Of a DNA stretch of 7,246 bases, positions 1 through 7,246 are shown in pieces. This DNA comes from Paracoccaceae bacterium (GTDB taxonomy: Bacteria; Pseudomonadota; Alphaproteobacteria; Rhodobacterales; Rhodobacteraceae). Below the pieces are notes generated by a model that saw nothing but the letters and a program-made list of their open reading frames with translations, did not search any database and was not told where the DNA came from. Location: assembly GCA_007131945.1 (NCBI GenBank), contig SLPP01000375.1, positions 1 to 7,246 of the forward strand. Reading direction: 5' to 3'. The translations under genes were made by a program, and so were the position numbers. Positions within the stretch are counted from its first letter, which is position 1. Every line of letters starts with the position of its first letter.

Positions 1-1617
1 AACTTCGGCCGGCTCTTCGCCATCCTCGGCCGCGAGGCCGGCAAGACGCAGCTCGACGCCGTCGGCGAATTGCGCGAGGCGGTCGATTTCCTGCGCTACT
101 ACGCCGCCCGCATCACGCCGGAAATGCGCCCGCGCGGGCGCATCACCTGCATCTCCCCCTGGAACTTCCCGCTGGCGATCTTCACCGGCCAGATCGCCGG
201 CGCGCTCGCCGCCGGCAACGCGGTGCTGGCGAAACCCGCCGAGCAGACGCCGCTGATCGCCGCCGCCGGGGTCGCGCTGATGCGCGAGGCCGGCGTGCCG
301 CCAACCGCGCTGCAGCTTCTGCCCGGCGAGGGCGGCACGGTCGGCGCGGCGCTGACCTCGGACCCGCGCATCGATGGCGTCGTCTTCACCGGCTCGACCG
401 AGACCGCGCAGGCGATCCGCCGGGCGATGGCCGAAAACCTCGATCCCGGCGCGCCGCTGGTGGCCGAGACCGGCGGGCTGAACGCGATGATCGTCGATTC
501 GACCGCGCTGCCGGAACAGGCGGTGCGCGACATCCTCGCCTCCGCCTTCCAGTCCGCGGGCCAGCGCTGCTCGGCGCTGCGCTGCCTCTACGTGCAGGAG
601 GACGTGGCCGACCACATGCAGGAGATGCTCTTCGGCGCGATGGACGAGCTGCGGCTGGGCGATCCCTGGGCGCTTTCGACCGATGTCGGGCCGGTGATCG
701 ACGCCGAGGCGCAGCGCGAGATCGCCGAGTATATCGCCGAGGCGCGCGCCGTGGGCCGGGTGCTGAAGGAACTCGCCGTGCCGAATGCCGGCCATTTCAT
801 CGCCCCCACGGTGATCCGCGTCGGCGGCATCGGGGATCTCCCGCGCGAGATCTTCGGCCCGGTCCTGCACCTCGCGCGGTTCAAGGCGAAGCATCTCGAC
901 CGGGTCATCGCCGACGTGAACGCGCGCGGCTACGGGCTGACCTTCGGGTTGCACACGCGCATCGACGACCGCGTGCAGACCGTGGTCGAGCAGGTCCGCG
1001 TCGGCAACATCTACGTCAACCGCAACCAGATCGGCGCCGTCGTCGGCAGCCAGCCCTTCGGCGGCGAGGGGCTCTCGGGCACCGGGCCGAAGGCCGGGGG
1101 ACCGGATTACGTCCCGCGCCTCGCCGCACCGAAACCCGCGTCCGGCCCGGCGGACGGGGCCGGCGCGCCGGCCGATCTGGCGGCGCTGGAACGCCGGCTT
1201 GCCGATGCCGGGCCAACCGCGGTCGTCGAGGCGCACGACCTGCCCGGGCCGACCGGCGAGTCGAACCGCCTGCGGCTGAGCCCGCGCGACCCCGTCCTCT
1301 GCCTCGGCCCCGGCGCCGAAGCCGAGGCGGCGCAGGTCGAGGCGGTGCGGATGCTGGGCGGCCGGGCGGTGGCGGCCGGCGGGTCGGTGCCGGCCGAATG
1401 GCTGGGCCGCGCGAGCGGCTTCTCGGCCGCGATCTGGTGGGGCGACGCGGCGACCGCGCGCGCCTGTGCGCAGGCGCTCGCCGGGCGCGCCGGGCCGATC
1501 CTGCCGCTGATCACGGCGATGCCGGACCGCGCGCAGGTCATGAACGAACGCCACCTCTGCGTCGACACCACCGCCTCGGGCGGCAACGCCCAGCTCCTCG
1601 CCGCGGTCTCGGCCTGA
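1..1617 (+). CDS. putA: Bifunctional proline dehydrogenase / L-glutamate-gamma-semialdehyde dehydrogenase, 3' part (5'-truncated by window)
   Basis: The frame is open from the first base to TGA at 1615-1617, giving 538 residues with no start in the window. This is the C-terminal half of PutA, which oxidises proline to glutamate; the visible part is the NAD-dependent P5C dehydrogenase half. Aldehyde dehydrogenase motifs appear in order, numbered by window codon: REAGKT near 12-17, SPWNFP with the conserved Asn at 55, Lys78 in KPAEQTP, the FTGS cofactor loop at 129-132, general-base Glu156 in ETGG, nucleophile Cys190 in SAGQRCSALR, and the QPFGGEGLSGTGPKAGGPDY block. About 170 further residues form the C-terminal domain of long PutA proteins, ending in a conserved-looking NERHLCVDTTASGGNAQLLA stretch. 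The proline dehydrogenase domain and any DNA-binding domain would lie upstream. The next gene is convergent, 27 bp away. A stand-alone ALDH is unlikely because of the C-terminal extension. Confidence 0.95.
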   Translation, partial: NFGRLFAILGREAGKTQLDAVGELREAVDFLRYYAARITPEMRPRGRITCISPWNFPLAIFTGQIAGALAAGNAVLAKPAEQTPLIAAAGVALMREAGVPPTALQLLPGEGGTVGAALTSDPRIDGVVFTGSTETAQAIRRAMAENLDPGAPLVAETGGLNAMIVDSTALPEQAVRDILASAFQSAGQRCSALRCLYVQEDVADHMQEMLFGAMDELRLGDPWALSTDVGPVIDAEAQREIAEYIAEARAVGRVLKELAVPNAGHFIAPTVIRVGGIGDLPREIFGPVLHLARFKAKHLDRVIADVNARGYGLTFGLHTRIDDRVQTVVEQVRVGNIYVNRNQIGAVVGSQPFGGEGLSGTGPKAGGPDYVPRLAAPKPASGPADGAGAPADLAALERRLADAGPTAVVEAHDLPGPTGESNRLRLSPRDPVLCLGPGAEAEAAQVEAVRMLGGRAVAAGGSVPAEWLGRASGFSAAIWWGDAATARACAQALAGRAGPILPLITAMPDRAQVMNERHLCVDTTASGGNAQLLAAVSA

Positions 1618-4410: not shown

Positions 4411-4728
4411 TCAGTAGACCGAGGTCACCTCGTAGAGCACCGGCTCGAAGCGCGAGCACATCGCCGCGATCGCCCGGTTGCGCTCGCGCATCTCGGGGGA
4501 GCGCAGCATGGCCTGGAAATCCTCGCGCCGCGTCCAGCGCGAATAGGTGGCGATGCGGGTCTGGGCGTCGTTGACATGGATCGCCGCGCCGATGAAGCCG
4601 GGCTGGTGGCGGATCACCTCGTCATAGGCCGCGGTCAGCGCCTCGAGCAGGTCGGCGCAGGTGCCGGGCGTCATCTCGAAGGTGGAAATCACCGTCTGGC
4701 CGGAAAAGTCGGGCGTGATCTCGAGCAT
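4411..4728 (-). CDS. Antibiotic biosynthesis monooxygenase (ABM) domain protein
   Basis: The product has 105 residues, the size of a single-domain dimeric alpha+beta barrel of the ABM/YgiN type. Typical features are the first strand (about residues 13-20, VISTFEMT), a helix with the LLEALTAAYDEVIRHQPGF pattern, a second strand pair around IGAAIHVN and RIATYSRW, and a helix with the W-x-x-x-E-D-F-x-A-M-L-R-S sequence found in this family. Some members oxidise quinols or polyketides without cofactors, while many others have no known reaction, so the substrate cannot be inferred. I chose ATG at 4728 because a perfect AGGAGG lies just upstream; the longer frame to 4794 starts with an Arg-rich, uncharacteristic stretch. 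It is the first gene of a likely two-gene minus-strand unit and is divergent from the thiamin region. Confidence 0.87.
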   Translation of the reverse strand: MLEITPDFSGQTVISTFEMTPGTCADLLEALTAAYDEVIRHQPGFIGAAIHVNDAQTRIATYSRWTRREDFQAMLRSPEMRERNRAIAAMCSRFEPVLYEVTSVY

Positions 4729-4801
4729 GGCTGGCCTCCTTGCTGGCCGGATACTGGGTCGAGCCATTCTGGCACGCTTTTCCCGGCGATGCATCCTCCC
4801 C

Positions 4802-4829
4802 TTGATCGCGCCGCGGCGAGGGTTAGGTT
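4802..4829 (+). promoter_or_regulatory. Candidate promoter for the first riboswitch-thiB unit
   Basis: TTGATC (4802-4807) and TAGGTT (4824-4829) are separated by 16 bp and lie just before the aptamer. The -10 match is poor (three of six), and the predicted start would fall at or just inside the 5' strand of P1, so the true promoter could lie slightly upstream between 4729 and 4830. I see no better pair there. Confidence 0.3.
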
Positions 4830-4832
4830 TGA

Positions 4833-4919
4833 GTCACCTCGGGGTGCCCGCCAGGGCTGAGACGCGATCCGCGAACCCGTCGAACCTGAACCGGTTAGGA
4901 CCGGCGGAGGGAAGGTGAC
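4833..4919 (+). ncRNA. TPP riboswitch (THI element), copy 1
   Basis: This is the thiamin pyrophosphate aptamer. The 5' strand reads CTCGGGGTGCC, followed by a P3 hairpin (GCCC 4846-4849 with GGGC 4854-4857) and the conserved CTGAGA at 4857-4862. A CGCG/CGCG P3a stem, the ACCCGT and AACCTG (4883-4888) segments, P5 (CCGG 4891-4894 with CCGG 4901-4904) and the GGCGGAGGGAAG core at 4903-4914 follow. P1 is a perfect 6-bp helix, GTCACC 4833-4838 with GGTGAC 4914-4919. Loop 5 is TTAGGA rather than the more usual TAATG-like loop, and the same variant occurs in copy 2. It controls the adjacent thiB paralogue, probably at translation, through the hairpin at 4927-4961. There is no terminator between aptamer and gene. 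Confidence 0.96.
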
Positions 4920-4926
4920 GGATGAA

Positions 4927-4961
4927 TTCCTCCATCCCCCCGCCCGTCGCAGATGGAGGAA
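4927..4961 (+). promoter_or_regulatory. SD-sequestering hairpin (riboswitch expression platform), copy 1
   Basis: TTCCTCCATC (4927-4936) is the exact reverse complement of GATGGAGGAA (4952-4961), giving a 10-bp stem with a 15-base loop that buries the ribosome binding site GGAGGA (4955-4960) of the thiB paralogue. The masking strand CCTCC (4929-4933) can instead pair with GGAGG (4906-4910) inside the aptamer core, extended by one G-U and one A-U pair to 4912/4927. TPP binding uses that core and so would free the masking strand to close the ribosome binding site. This is a classic translational OFF design, deduced from base pairing only. Confidence 0.8.
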
Positions 4962-4965
4962 GACC

Positions 4966-5958
4966 ATGAAAGCTCCGATCCTTGCTGCGGGACTGCTCTC
5001 GGCCACGGCGCTGGCCGCGGCGGCGGAAACCCGCGAACTGACGATCCATGCCTATGACAGCTTCGCCCGCAATGCCGGGCCGGGCATCGCCGAGGCATTC
5101 GCGGCCATCTGCGACTGCCGGGTGGACATCATCGGCGTCGGCTCATCGAGCGAGCTGCTCCCCGGGCTGATCGCGGCCGCGCCCGAGGATCGCCCGGATC
5201 TCGTGCTGGGTATCGACACCAGCAACCTTGCCGCGGCGCGCGCGAGCGGGCTCTTCGTCGCACACGAAGTGACGCCGCCGCCGCTCGACATGCCGGTCGA
5301 TTGGGACGACCCGCTCTTCCTGCCCTACAACTGGGGCTACTACGCCTTCATCTACGACAACGAAACCGTGGACACGCCACCCGCGAGCTTTGCCGAGCTG
5401 ATCGCTTCCGATCTGCGCGTGGTAATCCAGGATCCGCATGTCTCGACCACCGGGCTCGGCCTCTTGATGTGGGTCGAGGCCGCCTTCGGCGAGGAAGCCG
5501 GCGCGATCTGGCAGGTGCTCGCCGACCGGCCGGGCACGCAGGTCGTCCCCCGCTGGGCCGACGCCTATCACCCGGTCTTCCGCGCGGGCGAGACCGACAT
5601 GGTCCTCAGCTACGCCACCTCGCCGGCCTATCACGTCATCATGGAAGACGACGACGGCCCCCGCGCCGCCGCCTTCGACGAGGGGCACTACATCCGCATC
5701 GAGGTGGCCGGGCTTCTGGCCGGCGCGCTGGAGCCGGACCTGGCGCGCGACTTCCTCGAGTTCATGTTCACCGACGGTTTCCAGTCGGTGATCCCCACGA
5801 CGCGCTGGCTCTACCCCGTGGTGGTCCCGCAGGACGGCCTGCCCGAAGCCTTCGGCACCCTGATCGCGCCCGAAGCCGCGCTCCTCTTTCCCGCCGAGGA
5901 GGCCGAGGCCCGGCGCGAGGCGGCGCTCGGGCGCTGGCGCGCGGCCTTCGGCGAATGA
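4966..5958 (+). CDS. ThiB-family periplasmic binding protein, diverged paralogue
   Basis: The product has 330 residues. A Sec signal peptide (residues 1 to about 20, ending ALAAAA before ETRE) leads into a thiamin-binding-protein type substrate receptor for an ABC importer, acting in the periplasm. Family marks are AYDSF (29-33), CDC (49-51), LGIDT (81-85), FLPYNWGYYAFIYD (118-131), TTGLGLLMW (161-169), SYATSPAYH (215-223), FDEGHY (237-242) and IPTTRWLYP (276-284). Compared with copy 2 and with E. coli ThiB as I recall it, this protein has AG instead of WG after YDSF (Ala37), SS instead of DG at 60-61, and R280 instead of Asn before the conserved Trp281. ATG 4966 is chosen for its GGAGGA site and the signal peptide. 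It stands alone between a TPP riboswitch and a terminator. It may bind thiamin differently or bind a thiamin relative. Confidence 0.9.
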   Translation: MKAPILAAGLLSATALAAAAETRELTIHAYDSFARNAGPGIAEAFAAICDCRVDIIGVGSSSELLPGLIAAAPEDRPDLVLGIDTSNLAAARASGLFVAHEVTPPPLDMPVDWDDPLFLPYNWGYYAFIYDNETVDTPPASFAELIASDLRVVIQDPHVSTTGLGLLMWVEAAFGEEAGAIWQVLADRPGTQVVPRWADAYHPVFRAGETDMVLSYATSPAYHVIMEDDDGPRAAAFDEGHYIRIEVAGLLAGALEPDLARDFLEFMFTDGFQSVIPTTRWLYPVVVPQDGLPEAFGTLIAPEAALLFPAEEAEARREAALGRWRAAFGE

Positions 5959-5966
5959 CCGGCACC

Positions 5967-5999
5967 GGGGCGCCCGCATAGCCCGGGCGCCCCTTGTCC
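5967..5999 (+). terminator. Rho-independent-like terminator after the first thiB paralogue
   Basis: GGGGCGCCCG (5967-5976) pairs perfectly with CGGGCGCCCC (5984-5993), a 10-bp GC stem with a 7-base loop. It is followed by TTGTCC, a poor U tract of the sort often seen in high-GC alphaproteobacteria. It begins 8 bases after the stop codon. Because the stem is symmetrical and U-poor, partial read-through is possible, and it could act instead as a 3' stabilising hairpin. Confidence 0.7.
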
Positions 6000-6022
6000 G
6001 CGCCCTGCCCGCGCGTTACATC
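5994..6022 (+). promoter_or_regulatory. Candidate promoter for the second riboswitch-thiB unit
   Basis: TTGTCC (5994-5999) and TACATC (6017-6022) are 17 bp apart, each matching the sigma-70 consensus at four of six bases. The expected start, near 6029, coincides with the 5' edge of the second aptamer. The -35 box overlaps the tail of the preceding terminator, so the first unit would end where the second begins. Confidence 0.45.
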
Positions 6023-6028
6023 GAAAGA

Positions 6029-6115
6029 TACCTCGGGGTGCCCGTCACGGGCTGAGATGCGCGCTGCGCGAACCCGTTGAACCTGACCCGGTTAGGACCG
6101 GCGGAGGGAAGGTGA
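6029..6115 (+). ncRNA. TPP riboswitch (THI element), copy 2
   Basis: This copy has the same architecture as the first: CCTCGGGGTGCC, P3 (GCCCG 6040-6044 with CGGGC 6048-6052), CTGAGA (6052-6057), a GC-rich P3a stem, AACCTG (6080-6085), P5 (CCGG 6088-6091 with CCGG 6098-6101, loop TTAGGA) and GGCGGAGGGAAG at 6100-6111. P1 is weaker: TACC (6029-6032) against GGTG (6111-6114) gives four pairs, one of them G-U. P3 is one pair longer than in copy 1, and P3a has a different sequence but still pairs, which supports real aptamers in both places. GTGAC (6112-6116) could also pair with GTCAC (6044-6048) in an alternative fold. It controls the adjacent thiB. Confidence 0.96.
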
Positions 6116-6124
6116 CAGGCAAGC

Positions 6125-6158
6125 CCTCCACCCCCGAACCGCCCGTCGCAGATGGAGG
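6125..6158 (+). promoter_or_regulatory. SD-sequestering hairpin (riboswitch expression platform), copy 2
   Basis: CCTCCA (6125-6130) pairs with TGGAGG (6153-6158), covering the ribosome binding site GGAGGA (6154-6159) that precedes ATG 6166. The competing anti-sequestor is perfect: GGAGGG (6103-6108) in the aptamer core with CCCTCC (6124-6129). The sequestor stem is 6 bp here against 10 bp in copy 1, while the competing choice is the same. Confidence 0.75.
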
Positions 6159-6165
6159 AAGACCC

Positions 6166-7164
6166 ATGCGCTATCCGACACTTGCCGCGGGACTGCTGGC
6201 GGCCACCGCCCTCGCAGCCCCCCCGGCACAGGCCGATCAGCCCGAACTGATCGTCTACACCTATGACAGCTTCGTCAGCGACTGGGGCCCCGGCCCCGCC
6301 GTGACCGAGGCCTTCGAGGCGGTCTGCGACTGCCGGCTGAACCTCGTGGGCGTCGGCGACGGCGCCGCGCTCTTGGCCCGGCTGCAGCTCGAGGGCGAAC
6401 GCGCCGCGGCCGATATCGTCCTCGGCCTCGACACCAACCTGACCGCGCGGGCCGCGGCGACCGGCCTCTTCGCCCCGCACGGGGTCGAGGCCGATCTCGA
6501 CCTGCCCGTCGCCTGGGAGGACCCGCTCTTCCTGCCCTTCGACTGGGGCTGGTTCGCCTTCGTCTACGACCGCGACCGCGTGCCCGAGCCGCCGACGAAC
6601 TTCCGCGAACTGATCGACAGCGACCTCTCGATCGTCATCCAGGACCCGCGCTCCTCGACGCCGGGCCTGGGGCTGATGATGTGGGTCGAGGCGGCCCATG
6701 GCGACGCGGCCGCCGAGATCTGGCAGGGCCTCGCGCCGCGCATCCTGACCGTCACCCCGGGCTGGTCGCAGGCCTACGGGCTCTTCATCGACGGCGAGGC
6801 CGACATGGTGCTGAGCTACACCACCTCGCCCGCCTATCACCTGATCGCCGAGGGTGACGATTCGAAGGCCGCCGCGCCGTTCGACGAGGGCCACTACATG
6901 CAGATCGAGGTCGCCGGCATTCTCGCCTCCTCCGACCAGCCAGAGCTTGCCCGGCAGTTCATGGCGTTCATGGTCTCCGATGCCTTCCAGTCGATCATCC
7001 CGACCACGAACTGGATGTATCCCGCCGTCACCCCCGAAGCCGGGCTGCCCGAGGGCTTCGAGACCCTGCACCGGCCCGAGATCTCGCTGCTCTTCCCCGA
7101 CGCCGAGGCCGCCGCGATCCGCGACGCGGCGCTCGACCGCTGGCGCAACGCGCTGGCGCGGTAG
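6166..7164 (+). CDS. thiB: Thiamin-binding periplasmic protein of the thiamin ABC transporter
   Basis: The product has 332 residues including a Sec signal peptide (1 to about 23, cleavage after AQA). It is the substrate receptor that delivers thiamin and its phosphates to the ThiP-ThiQ importer. It follows E. coli ThiB (TbpA) closely along its length: YTYDSF (31-36) followed by DWGPGP with Trp40, CDC (54-56), GDG at 64-66, LGLDTN (86-91), SSTPGLGLMMW (163-173), TPGWSQAYGLF (197-207) with Trp200, SYTTSPAYH (217-225), FDEGHY and IPTTNWMYP (278-286) with Trp283. These include the aromatic positions I recall lining the thiamin site. ATG 6166 is supported by GGAGGA 6 bases upstream and by the signal peptide starting there. 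It is probably the first gene of thiBPQ, whose remainder would lie beyond the window. Confidence 0.96.
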   Translation: MRYPTLAAGLLAATALAAPPAQADQPELIVYTYDSFVSDWGPGPAVTEAFEAVCDCRLNLVGVGDGAALLARLQLEGERAAADIVLGLDTNLTARAAATGLFAPHGVEADLDLPVAWEDPLFLPFDWGWFAFVYDRDRVPEPPTNFRELIDSDLSIVIQDPRSSTPGLGLMMWVEAAHGDAAAEIWQGLAPRILTVTPGWSQAYGLFIDGEADMVLSYTTSPAYHLIAEGDDSKAAAPFDEGHYMQIEVAGILASSDQPELARQFMAFMVSDAFQSIIPTTNWMYPAVTPEAGLPEGFETLHRPEISLLFPDAEAAAIRDAALDRWRNALAR

Positions 7165-7176
7165 CGGGCGGCGGAT

Positions 7177-7246
7177 GTGACGCGGCACCCGCTCGTCGGG
7201 GCGGCCACCGCCCCCGGTCGTCCTGCCGGCGGGCCGCCGGGCCGCG
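7177..7246 (+). CDS. Possible start of the next gene (thiP candidate), truncated by window end
   Basis: GTG at 7177 begins 12 bases after the thiB stop and stays open for 23 codons to the window edge (VTRHPLVGAATAPGRPAGGP...). The position is where thiP, the permease of the thiamin importer, usually starts, and a basic tail before the first membrane helix would be acceptable. No transmembrane segment is reached, so the identity rests on gene order alone. The nearby ATG at 7175 is followed directly by TGA. Confidence 0.3.
   Translation, partial: MTRHPLVGAATAPGRPAGGPPGR

What the first reader, a model, noticed from the sequence alone, without database searches (positions are those of the whole stretch)
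4833..7164. Two consecutive TPP riboswitch-thiB transcription units
Thiamin importers normally have one binding protein at the head of thiBPQ. Here a complete riboswitch, expression platform and receptor gene are duplicated in tandem, with a strong hairpin terminator and a candidate promoter in between, so each copy looks independently expressed. The first unit has no permease or ATPase of its own, which suggests two receptors sharing one ThiPQ. The layout is seen directly; the sharing is inference.
Basis: partly seen in the sequence, partly recalled or inferred. Interest (0 to 1): 0.72.

Follow-up and report, generated by a model that had tools for sequence, protein, structure and literature searches.

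The report
Twin riboswitch-controlled thiamin receptors, one pump
This bacterium carries two clearly different vitamin-B1 receptor genes side by side, each behind its own vitamin-sensing RNA switch; both likely deliver to one shared import pump, and the first belongs to a receptor branch whose named carriers apparently all come from soda lakes.

Summary
The layout is real. Two TPP riboswitches (4830-4929, 6024-6126) each precede a thiB-family gene (4966-5958, 6166-7164). The window is a whole contig ending 82 bases after thiB2; the genome's only clear thiP, with the best thiQ, starts another contig. In the relative L074, riboswitch-thiB1-riboswitch-thiB2-thiP is continuous; in L075 thiQ follows too.

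It is not a recent duplication: ThiB1 and ThiB2 are 57% identical and lie in different clades. ThiB1 misses the ThiB equivalog cut-off and keeps 7 of 9 published thiamin contacts.

A CTTG element at fixed spacing precedes 31 of 32 thiB leaders, both of these included, which supports separate promoters. The hairpin between the units is real but has no U-tract, so 'terminator' is unproven. Both ribosome sites are predicted to be sequestered.

Two-thiB genomes are rare: 6 of 314 thiB-bearing family genomes, and none of 92 other thiB-bearing genomes in a phylum sample. They pair different receptor classes.

Best reading: two unlike receptors, each predicted to be repressed by TPP, sharing one ThiPQ. 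A new variant of a known kind; the ligand difference is untested.

The parts
4801..4828 (+). Predicted promoter of unit 1: CTTG at 4801, -10-like TTAGGT at 4823-4828
   Evidence: CTTG 37 nt before the aptamer anchor; 31 of 32 thiB leaders have it at 37-39 nt. The E. coli-type scan found no promoter
4830..4929 (+). TPP riboswitch 1 (RF00059)
   Evidence: 69.4 bits, gathering 54.3
4927..4961 (+). Predicted SD-sequestering hairpin of unit 1 (4927-4936 with 4952-4961; SD GGAGG 4955-4959)
   Evidence: 10-bp helix, reached by 0 of 500 shuffles
4966..5958 (+). thiB1, divergent thiamin-type receptor, 330 aa
   Evidence: TIGR01254 250 bits (cut-off 93); TIGR01276 236 bits (cut-off 317); PDB 2QRY E 4.5e-75
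5967..5993 (+). Hairpin between the units; terminator function unproven
   Evidence: 10-bp stem; only two T after it, terminator scan 0 found
5993..6021 (+). Predicted promoter of unit 2: CTTG at 5993, -10-like TTACAT at 6016-6021
   Evidence: CTTG 39 nt before the anchor; same element before the second riboswitch in G008, G441 and, by eye, G003, PLM2.Bin49 and CSSed165cm_253
6024..6126 (+). TPP riboswitch 2 (RF00059)
   Evidence: 80.9 bits; 84 of 103 columns identical to riboswitch 1
6125..6158 (+). Predicted SD-sequestering hairpin of unit 2 (6125-6130 with 6153-6158)
   Evidence: 6-bp helix, reached by 82 of 500 shuffles, so weak alone
6166..7164 (+). thiB2, resident (main-type) thiamin receptor, 332 aa
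   Evidence: TIGR01276 360 bits, over the cut-off 317; 2QRY E 2.5e-114

Best explanation
The locus holds two adjacent TPP-riboswitch/thiB units that encode two different thiamin-type receptors (57% identical), which likely both hand their ligand to the single ThiPQ importer, while TPP is predicted to switch off translation of each unit separately. Each unit has its own predicted promoter just before the aptamer. In low TPP both receptors would be made, and unit 2 would likely also drive thiP and thiQ. ThiB2 is the receptor type usual in the genus. ThiB1 is a divergent receptor that keeps the aromatic cage for the thiamin rings but has changed other positions (D59, G60, W34, G196, N279 in E. 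coli numbering), so it is likely tuned to another thiamin form or to harsher conditions. Shown: layout, receptor classes, conserved promoter-like element, one clear thiP, the order in relatives. Inferred: sharing of ThiPQ, separate transcription, translational control, ligand shift.
For: Two riboswitches and two thiB-family genes. One clear thiP in the genome, 316 bits, next 62 bits; thiB1-thiB2-thiP continuous in L074, thiQ too in L075. CTTG at 37-39 nt before the aptamer in 31 of 32 leaders, shuffle mean 2.9. ThiB1 is a clade of its own, support 1.00, keeps 7 of 9 published contacts and has changed D59 and G60 in 13 of 13 rows. Protein sequence is kept at 79% between genera where silent sites are about half identical, so it is under purifying selection. 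Receptors are paired in front of one thiPQ in five further genera. Translational control of the E. coli tbpA (thiB) riboswitch is shown in PMC11487190 (passages).
Against: No binding or expression data. The link from C284 to C290 is not bridged: no end overlap of 10 bases or more was found. An E. coli-type promoter scan finds no site in the window. The SD helix exceeds all shuffles in only 1 of 10 leaders tested, window unit 1; the others are reached by 39 to 426 of 500. ThiP and ThiQ of C290 are below their equivalog cut-offs (316 of 395; 223 of 245 bits).
Confidence: 0.6

Rival explanations
1. Plain redundancy: ThiB1 and ThiB2 bind the same ligand equally well and the pair only raises receptor dose.
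For: The ring-contacting residues Y27, S161, T162, W197, Y215, S218 and W280 are kept in ThiB1; both units have the same kind of switch.
Against: Not recent copies: 57% identical and separate clades; D59 and G60 changed in 13 of 13 ThiB1 rows, and G196R and N279R fixed, while main-type receptors keep D59 in 19 of 19 rows.
Confidence: 0.2
2. One transcript from the first promoter carries both receptors and thiPQ; the second riboswitch is an internal translational switch.
For: The hairpin lacks a U-tract and the terminator scan is negative; in G027, G336, G447 and G225 two receptors follow one riboswitch.
Against: The promoter-like element before the second riboswitch is at the same spacing as in single-copy leaders, in six of six examined.
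Confidence: 0.14
3. ThiB1 serves another permease, or only stores or senses its ligand.
For: Its pocket differs; the genome holds many ABC ATPases (94 matches to the ThiQ model).
Against: No second ThiP match above 63 bits; thiB1 stands directly before thiB-thiP in both ThiB1 contigs long enough to show it (L074, L075).
Confidence: 0.05
4. Assembly artefact that doubled one unit.
For: The window is one contig of a 417-contig assembly, and contig C290 does start with an inverted artefact.
Against: Same order in other public assemblies, with clearly different copies.
Confidence: 0.01

Closest known systems
ThiBPQ thiamin importer with the tbpA/thiB TPP riboswitch (E. coli)
   Same: TPP riboswitch before a ThiB receptor and one ThiPQ; translation of tbpA is switched by TPP (PMC11487190, passages)
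   Different: E. coli has one receptor and one switch at the head of thiBPQ; here two unlike receptors, each with its own switch
Tandem TPP riboswitches in one leader
   Same: Two TPP switches in a row for thiamin genes; 213 tandem representatives are reported (PMC9481103, passages; also PMC12452182, passages)
   Different: Those are described as acting together in one leader; here a whole receptor gene lies between. I could not inspect the 213 and do not know whether any has this layout
LivJ/LivK and HisJ/ArgT receptor pairs (recalled, not from a call)
   Same: Two periplasmic receptors for one ABC permease
   Different: Amino acids, not vitamin B1; no riboswitch before each receptor
Natrialba magadii ThiBPQ plus ThiB2
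   Same: An alkaliphile annotated with an extra ThiB (PMC3403918, passages)
   Different: An archaeon; by locus tag the second gene lies elsewhere in its genome; riboswitches there were not examined

Membership tests
TPP riboswitch (RF00059) | Score over Rfam's gathering threshold, full model | tested here: met
   Both: 69.4 and 80.9 bits against 54.3, positions 1-105
TPP riboswitch (RF00059) | Binds TPP and changes expression | not testable with these tools
   Needs probing and reporters
ThiB equivalog (TIGR01276) | Over the curated cut-off 317 bits | tested here: met
   ThiB2: 359.6 bits
ThiB equivalog (TIGR01276) | Over the curated cut-off 317 bits, ThiB1 | tested here: not met
   ThiB1: 236 bits; two other ThiB1 members 250 and 243; four main-type controls 343-362
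Thiamin receptor subfamily (TIGR01254) | Over the curated cut-off 93 bits | tested here: met
   ThiB1 250, ThiB2 334 bits
Thiamin receptor | Published thiamin contacts of E. coli ThiB | tested here: inconclusive
   ThiB1 keeps 7 of 9; D59 and G60 changed (residue list from PMC12400320)
ThiBPQ operon | thiP and thiQ follow thiB | tested here: inconclusive
   Contig ends at 7246; one clear thiP with the best thiQ at the start of C290, both under their equivalog cut-offs; continuous in L074 (thiP) and L075 (thiP, thiQ)
Intrinsic terminator between the units | G+C-rich hairpin followed by a U-tract | tested here: not met
   Hairpin present; two T only, scan 0 found

The most novel reading that the evidence does not exclude
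ThiB1 is a receptor for a thiamin vitamer other than plain thiamin, such as a phosphate ester or a form that arises in alkaline water, and it spread long ago among soda-lake Rhodobacteraceae as a self-contained promoter-riboswitch-receptor cassette that plugs in front of whatever thiBPQ operon is resident.
Probability: 0.2. Interest if true: 0.72.

Novelty: new variant of a known kind. Interest (0 to 1): 0.44.

Why it matters
It offers a natural set of receptor pairs (type II + main, ThiB1 + main, ThiB1 + type II) in front of one importer for vitamin B1, some with a separate TPP switch for each receptor. That makes receptor sharing and vitamer choice in B1 uptake directly testable. If ThiB1 takes an alkali-formed vitamer, it would help explain how soda-lake bacteria without a detected thiC obtain B1 in water where thiamin is unstable.

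Tried and rejected
Recent horizontal transfer of the thiB1 cassette. Proposed because ThiB1 is 79% identical between the window and PLM2.Bin49 while ThiP is 60%, ThiQ 66%, ImpA 72% and the second receptors 53%, and because nucleotide homology with PLM2.Bin49 and CSSed165cm_253 starts at 4836, inside the aptamer. But fourfold-degenerate sites are as diverged in thiB1 (52% identical) as in thiP (53%) and little less alike than in impA (58%); only thiQ is lower (36%). A recent transfer is not supported; an old one, or vertical descent with replacement of the operon, both remain. The ThiB1 tree does not decide it (the nodes that matter have support 0.27-0.73).

Assembly artefact: rejected.

Link of ThiB1 or dual receptors to thiamin auxotrophy: thiC in 0 of 6 ThiB1 genomes against 6 of 14 other genus members, p 0.11; in 1 of 11 dual-receptor or ThiB1 genomes against the same 6 of 14, p 0.09. 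G005 was not given to that search, several genomes are incomplete, and G007 and G013 have no thiB match at all. Suggestive only.

Relic of a second riboswitch in G225 and G447: none at E up to 1.

Acidic surface as a mark of ThiB1: rejected; four ThiB1 have pI 4.23-4.27 and one 4.05, six of the main and single-copy receptors 4.05-4.11.

Structure prediction was not run: the sequence match to 2QRY is clear and the tool gives no pocket coordinates.
Full report
What is there. Two TPP riboswitches, 4830-4929 and 6024-6126, are full length and over the gathering score; the assembly (92% complete) has no others. Each precedes a thiB-family gene, thiB1 (4966-5958) and thiB2 (6166-7164). The window is the whole of contig C284 and ends 82 bases after thiB2.

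Where thiP and thiQ are. The genome's only clear thiP (316 bits, next 62) and its best thiQ lie together at the start of contig C290. In the genus member G012 the order is ImpA, ABM, thiB, thiP, thiQ, AGCS; the window holds the first three and C290 the last three. No end overlap joins the two contigs, so the link in this genome is inferred. In L074 (SLKW01000189.1, matching G008:C470) riboswitch-thiB1-riboswitch-thiB2-thiP is continuous, and in L075 (REER01000073.1, PLM2.Bin49) thiQ follows too. In L076 and L078 the contig ends in or before the second receptor; L077 ends inside thiB1.

Not a recent duplicate. ThiB1 and ThiB2 are 57% identical. ThiB2 groups with the single receptors of the genus. 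ThiB1 forms its own clade (support 1.00) whose sister group is four metagenome proteins (P0011, P0020, P0042, P0060; support 1.00). In a search of 5.8 billion proteins the ThiB1 clade is ten clusters at 77-100% identity, then a drop to 58% (7998 candidates scored, the best 120 of 637 hits listed). ThiB1 is below the ThiB equivalog cut-off of 317 bits (236, 250 and 243 in three members); window ThiB2 and four main-type controls pass; two type II receptors fall just below (309, 293).

The pocket. A docking paper lists nine residues around thiamin in E. coli ThiB and says they match the literature (PMC12400320, passages); I shifted its numbers by four to match the chain. ThiB1 keeps seven: Y27, S161, T162, W197, Y215, S218 in 13 of 13 rows and W280 in the 12 rows that reach it. 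D59 is S in 9 and P in 4; G60 is S in 13. It also has W34A and G196R in 13 of 13 and N279R in 12 rows. One row is the partial protein of L077. Main-type receptors keep D59 in 19 of 19 rows. The likely reading is a thiamin-type ligand with altered recognition; untested.

Regulation. In thiB leaders from the loci held, CTTG lies 37-39 nt before the aptamer's conserved CTCGGGG in 31 of 32; mononucleotide shuffles, allowed a wider range of 30-52 nt, average 2.9 with a maximum of 8 in 200. The 32 are those of 61 anchor sites followed by a YDSF-type receptor start, so type II leaders are mostly left out, and they are not independent, coming mostly from one family. Both window units have the element (4801, 5993), as do the second riboswitches of G008 and G441 and, read by eye, those of G003, PLM2.Bin49 and CSSed165cm_253. 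A strict E. coli-type promoter scan finds no site in the window. After aptamer 1 a 10-bp helix covers the ribosome site (0 of 500 shuffles); after aptamer 2 the helix is 6 bp (82 of 500). In the other 8 leaders tested 39 to 426 of 500 shuffles do as well, so only window unit 1 stands out. The site is predicted unpaired with probability 0.06 and 0.30 in the two window leaders; in the ten leaders 0.06-0.45, except 0.74 for G441 unit 1. This is compatible with the sequestration reported for E. coli tbpA (PMC11487190, passages). The region between the units folds into a hairpin in all six two-riboswitch loci (z -1.4 to -4.0; three of the six are only about -1.4), but the window's has no U-tract.

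How common. Of 18 genus genomes 15 have a match to ThiB1 and three carry the ThiB1 clade itself (G000 100%, G008 87%, G003 81%); the others match at 51-59% through their single ThiB. The three without a match are 64-85% complete. In 394 family genomes, about one per genus, 314 have thiB and 6 have two: G000, G027, G225, G336, G441, G447. In all six the two genes are adjacent. G000 and G441 have two riboswitches, the other four one. In 397 genomes drawn across the phylum, some of them the same family genomes, 93 have thiB and only G000, included as the centre, has two.

Combinations. The tree gives three receptor classes: main, type II (first copies in G027, G225, G336, G441, G447) and ThiB1. 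G027, G336, G441 and G447 pair type II with main; G225 pairs type II with a divergent copy at the base of the type II branch; the window and G008 pair ThiB1 with main; PLM2.Bin49 and CSSed165cm_253 pair ThiB1 with a receptor in the type II branch (support 0.98; its exact place inside has 0.54). Many family genomes with one thiB have one that is clearly closer to the type II query (about 60-74% identical); I made no tree of these. Homology of the window with PLM2.Bin49 and CSSed165cm_253 begins inside the aptamer, while with G003 and G008 it goes on upstream. Silent sites do not support a recent transfer.

Habitat. The five named ThiB1-clade contigs bear isolate names CSSed (three), B1Sed10 (one) and PLM2.Bin49. 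PMC6146748 uses CSSed and B1Sed10 for soda-lake sediment sets and names Cock Soda Lake and Bitter-1 (passages); the CSSed16 sets are not in those passages. That PLM2 stands for Probe Lake is my reading; the paper on the Canadian soda lakes gives pH 10.1-10.7 but has no PLM in its text (PMC6748926, passages). PMC11092380 lists PLM2.Bin49 and CSSed165cm_253 among genomes in its section on Roseibaca, Roseinatronobacter and Natronohydrobacter (passages). The window's own habitat is unknown. Thiamin decomposes in alkaline conditions (PMC8839250, passages). thiC was found in none of 6 ThiB1 genomes and in 6 of 14 other genus members given, not a significant difference.

What is in print. Searches for TPP riboswitch with thiBPQ (11 papers), tandem with TPP riboswitch and thiB (4) and names for a second thiB (1, Natrialba magadii) showed no such layout in the listings. 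Passages of two papers on tandem riboswitches (PMC9481103; PMC12452182) treat tandem TPP switches acting on one leader. Only open-licence papers were searched.

Verdict. It is best read as two unlike receptors for one thiamin importer, with separate predicted control: a variant of a known system, of moderate interest, with a testable idea about vitamer use in alkaline lakes.

Noticed in passing
L071 (G000:C290) 1-70: The first 70 bases of the thiP contig are an exact reverse complement of bases 313-382 of the same contig, an assembly artefact at the contig end.
   Followed up: partly
L090 (G012), gap between thiB and thiP, locus 5187-6213: About 1 kb between thiB and thiP holds repeated palindromes; TTTCCCCGCGGGGAAA occurs 6 times in L090 and not in nine other loci or contigs checked, the window included.
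   Followed up: partly
window 4411-4794 (-) and L089-L100: A small ABM-domain protein stands divergently beside thiBPQ in all 12 single-thiB genus loci read and in the window; its link to thiamin is unknown.
   Followed up: no
G006:C55:236452-241326, G009:C11:152373-157231: Two TPP riboswitches face each other about 4.6 kb apart around thiC; G019:C10:99014-101948 has a similar facing pair, thiC not tested there.
   Followed up: no
L130 4504-5481 and similar genes in the family: Type II ThiB receptors lack Y27 (0 of 7 rows) and have a gap at D59-G60 (7 of 7 rows), yet in many family genomes such a gene is the only thiB; their ligand range is an open question.
   Followed up: partly
L128 4613-5551 (-): The second receptor of G225 is a long-branch ThiB (41-52% identical to every receptor compared), 213 bases after the first copy, with no riboswitch between.
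   Followed up: partly
window 1-1617 (+): C-terminal part of a PutA-like proline/glutamate-semialdehyde dehydrogenase, cut by the contig start.
   Followed up: no
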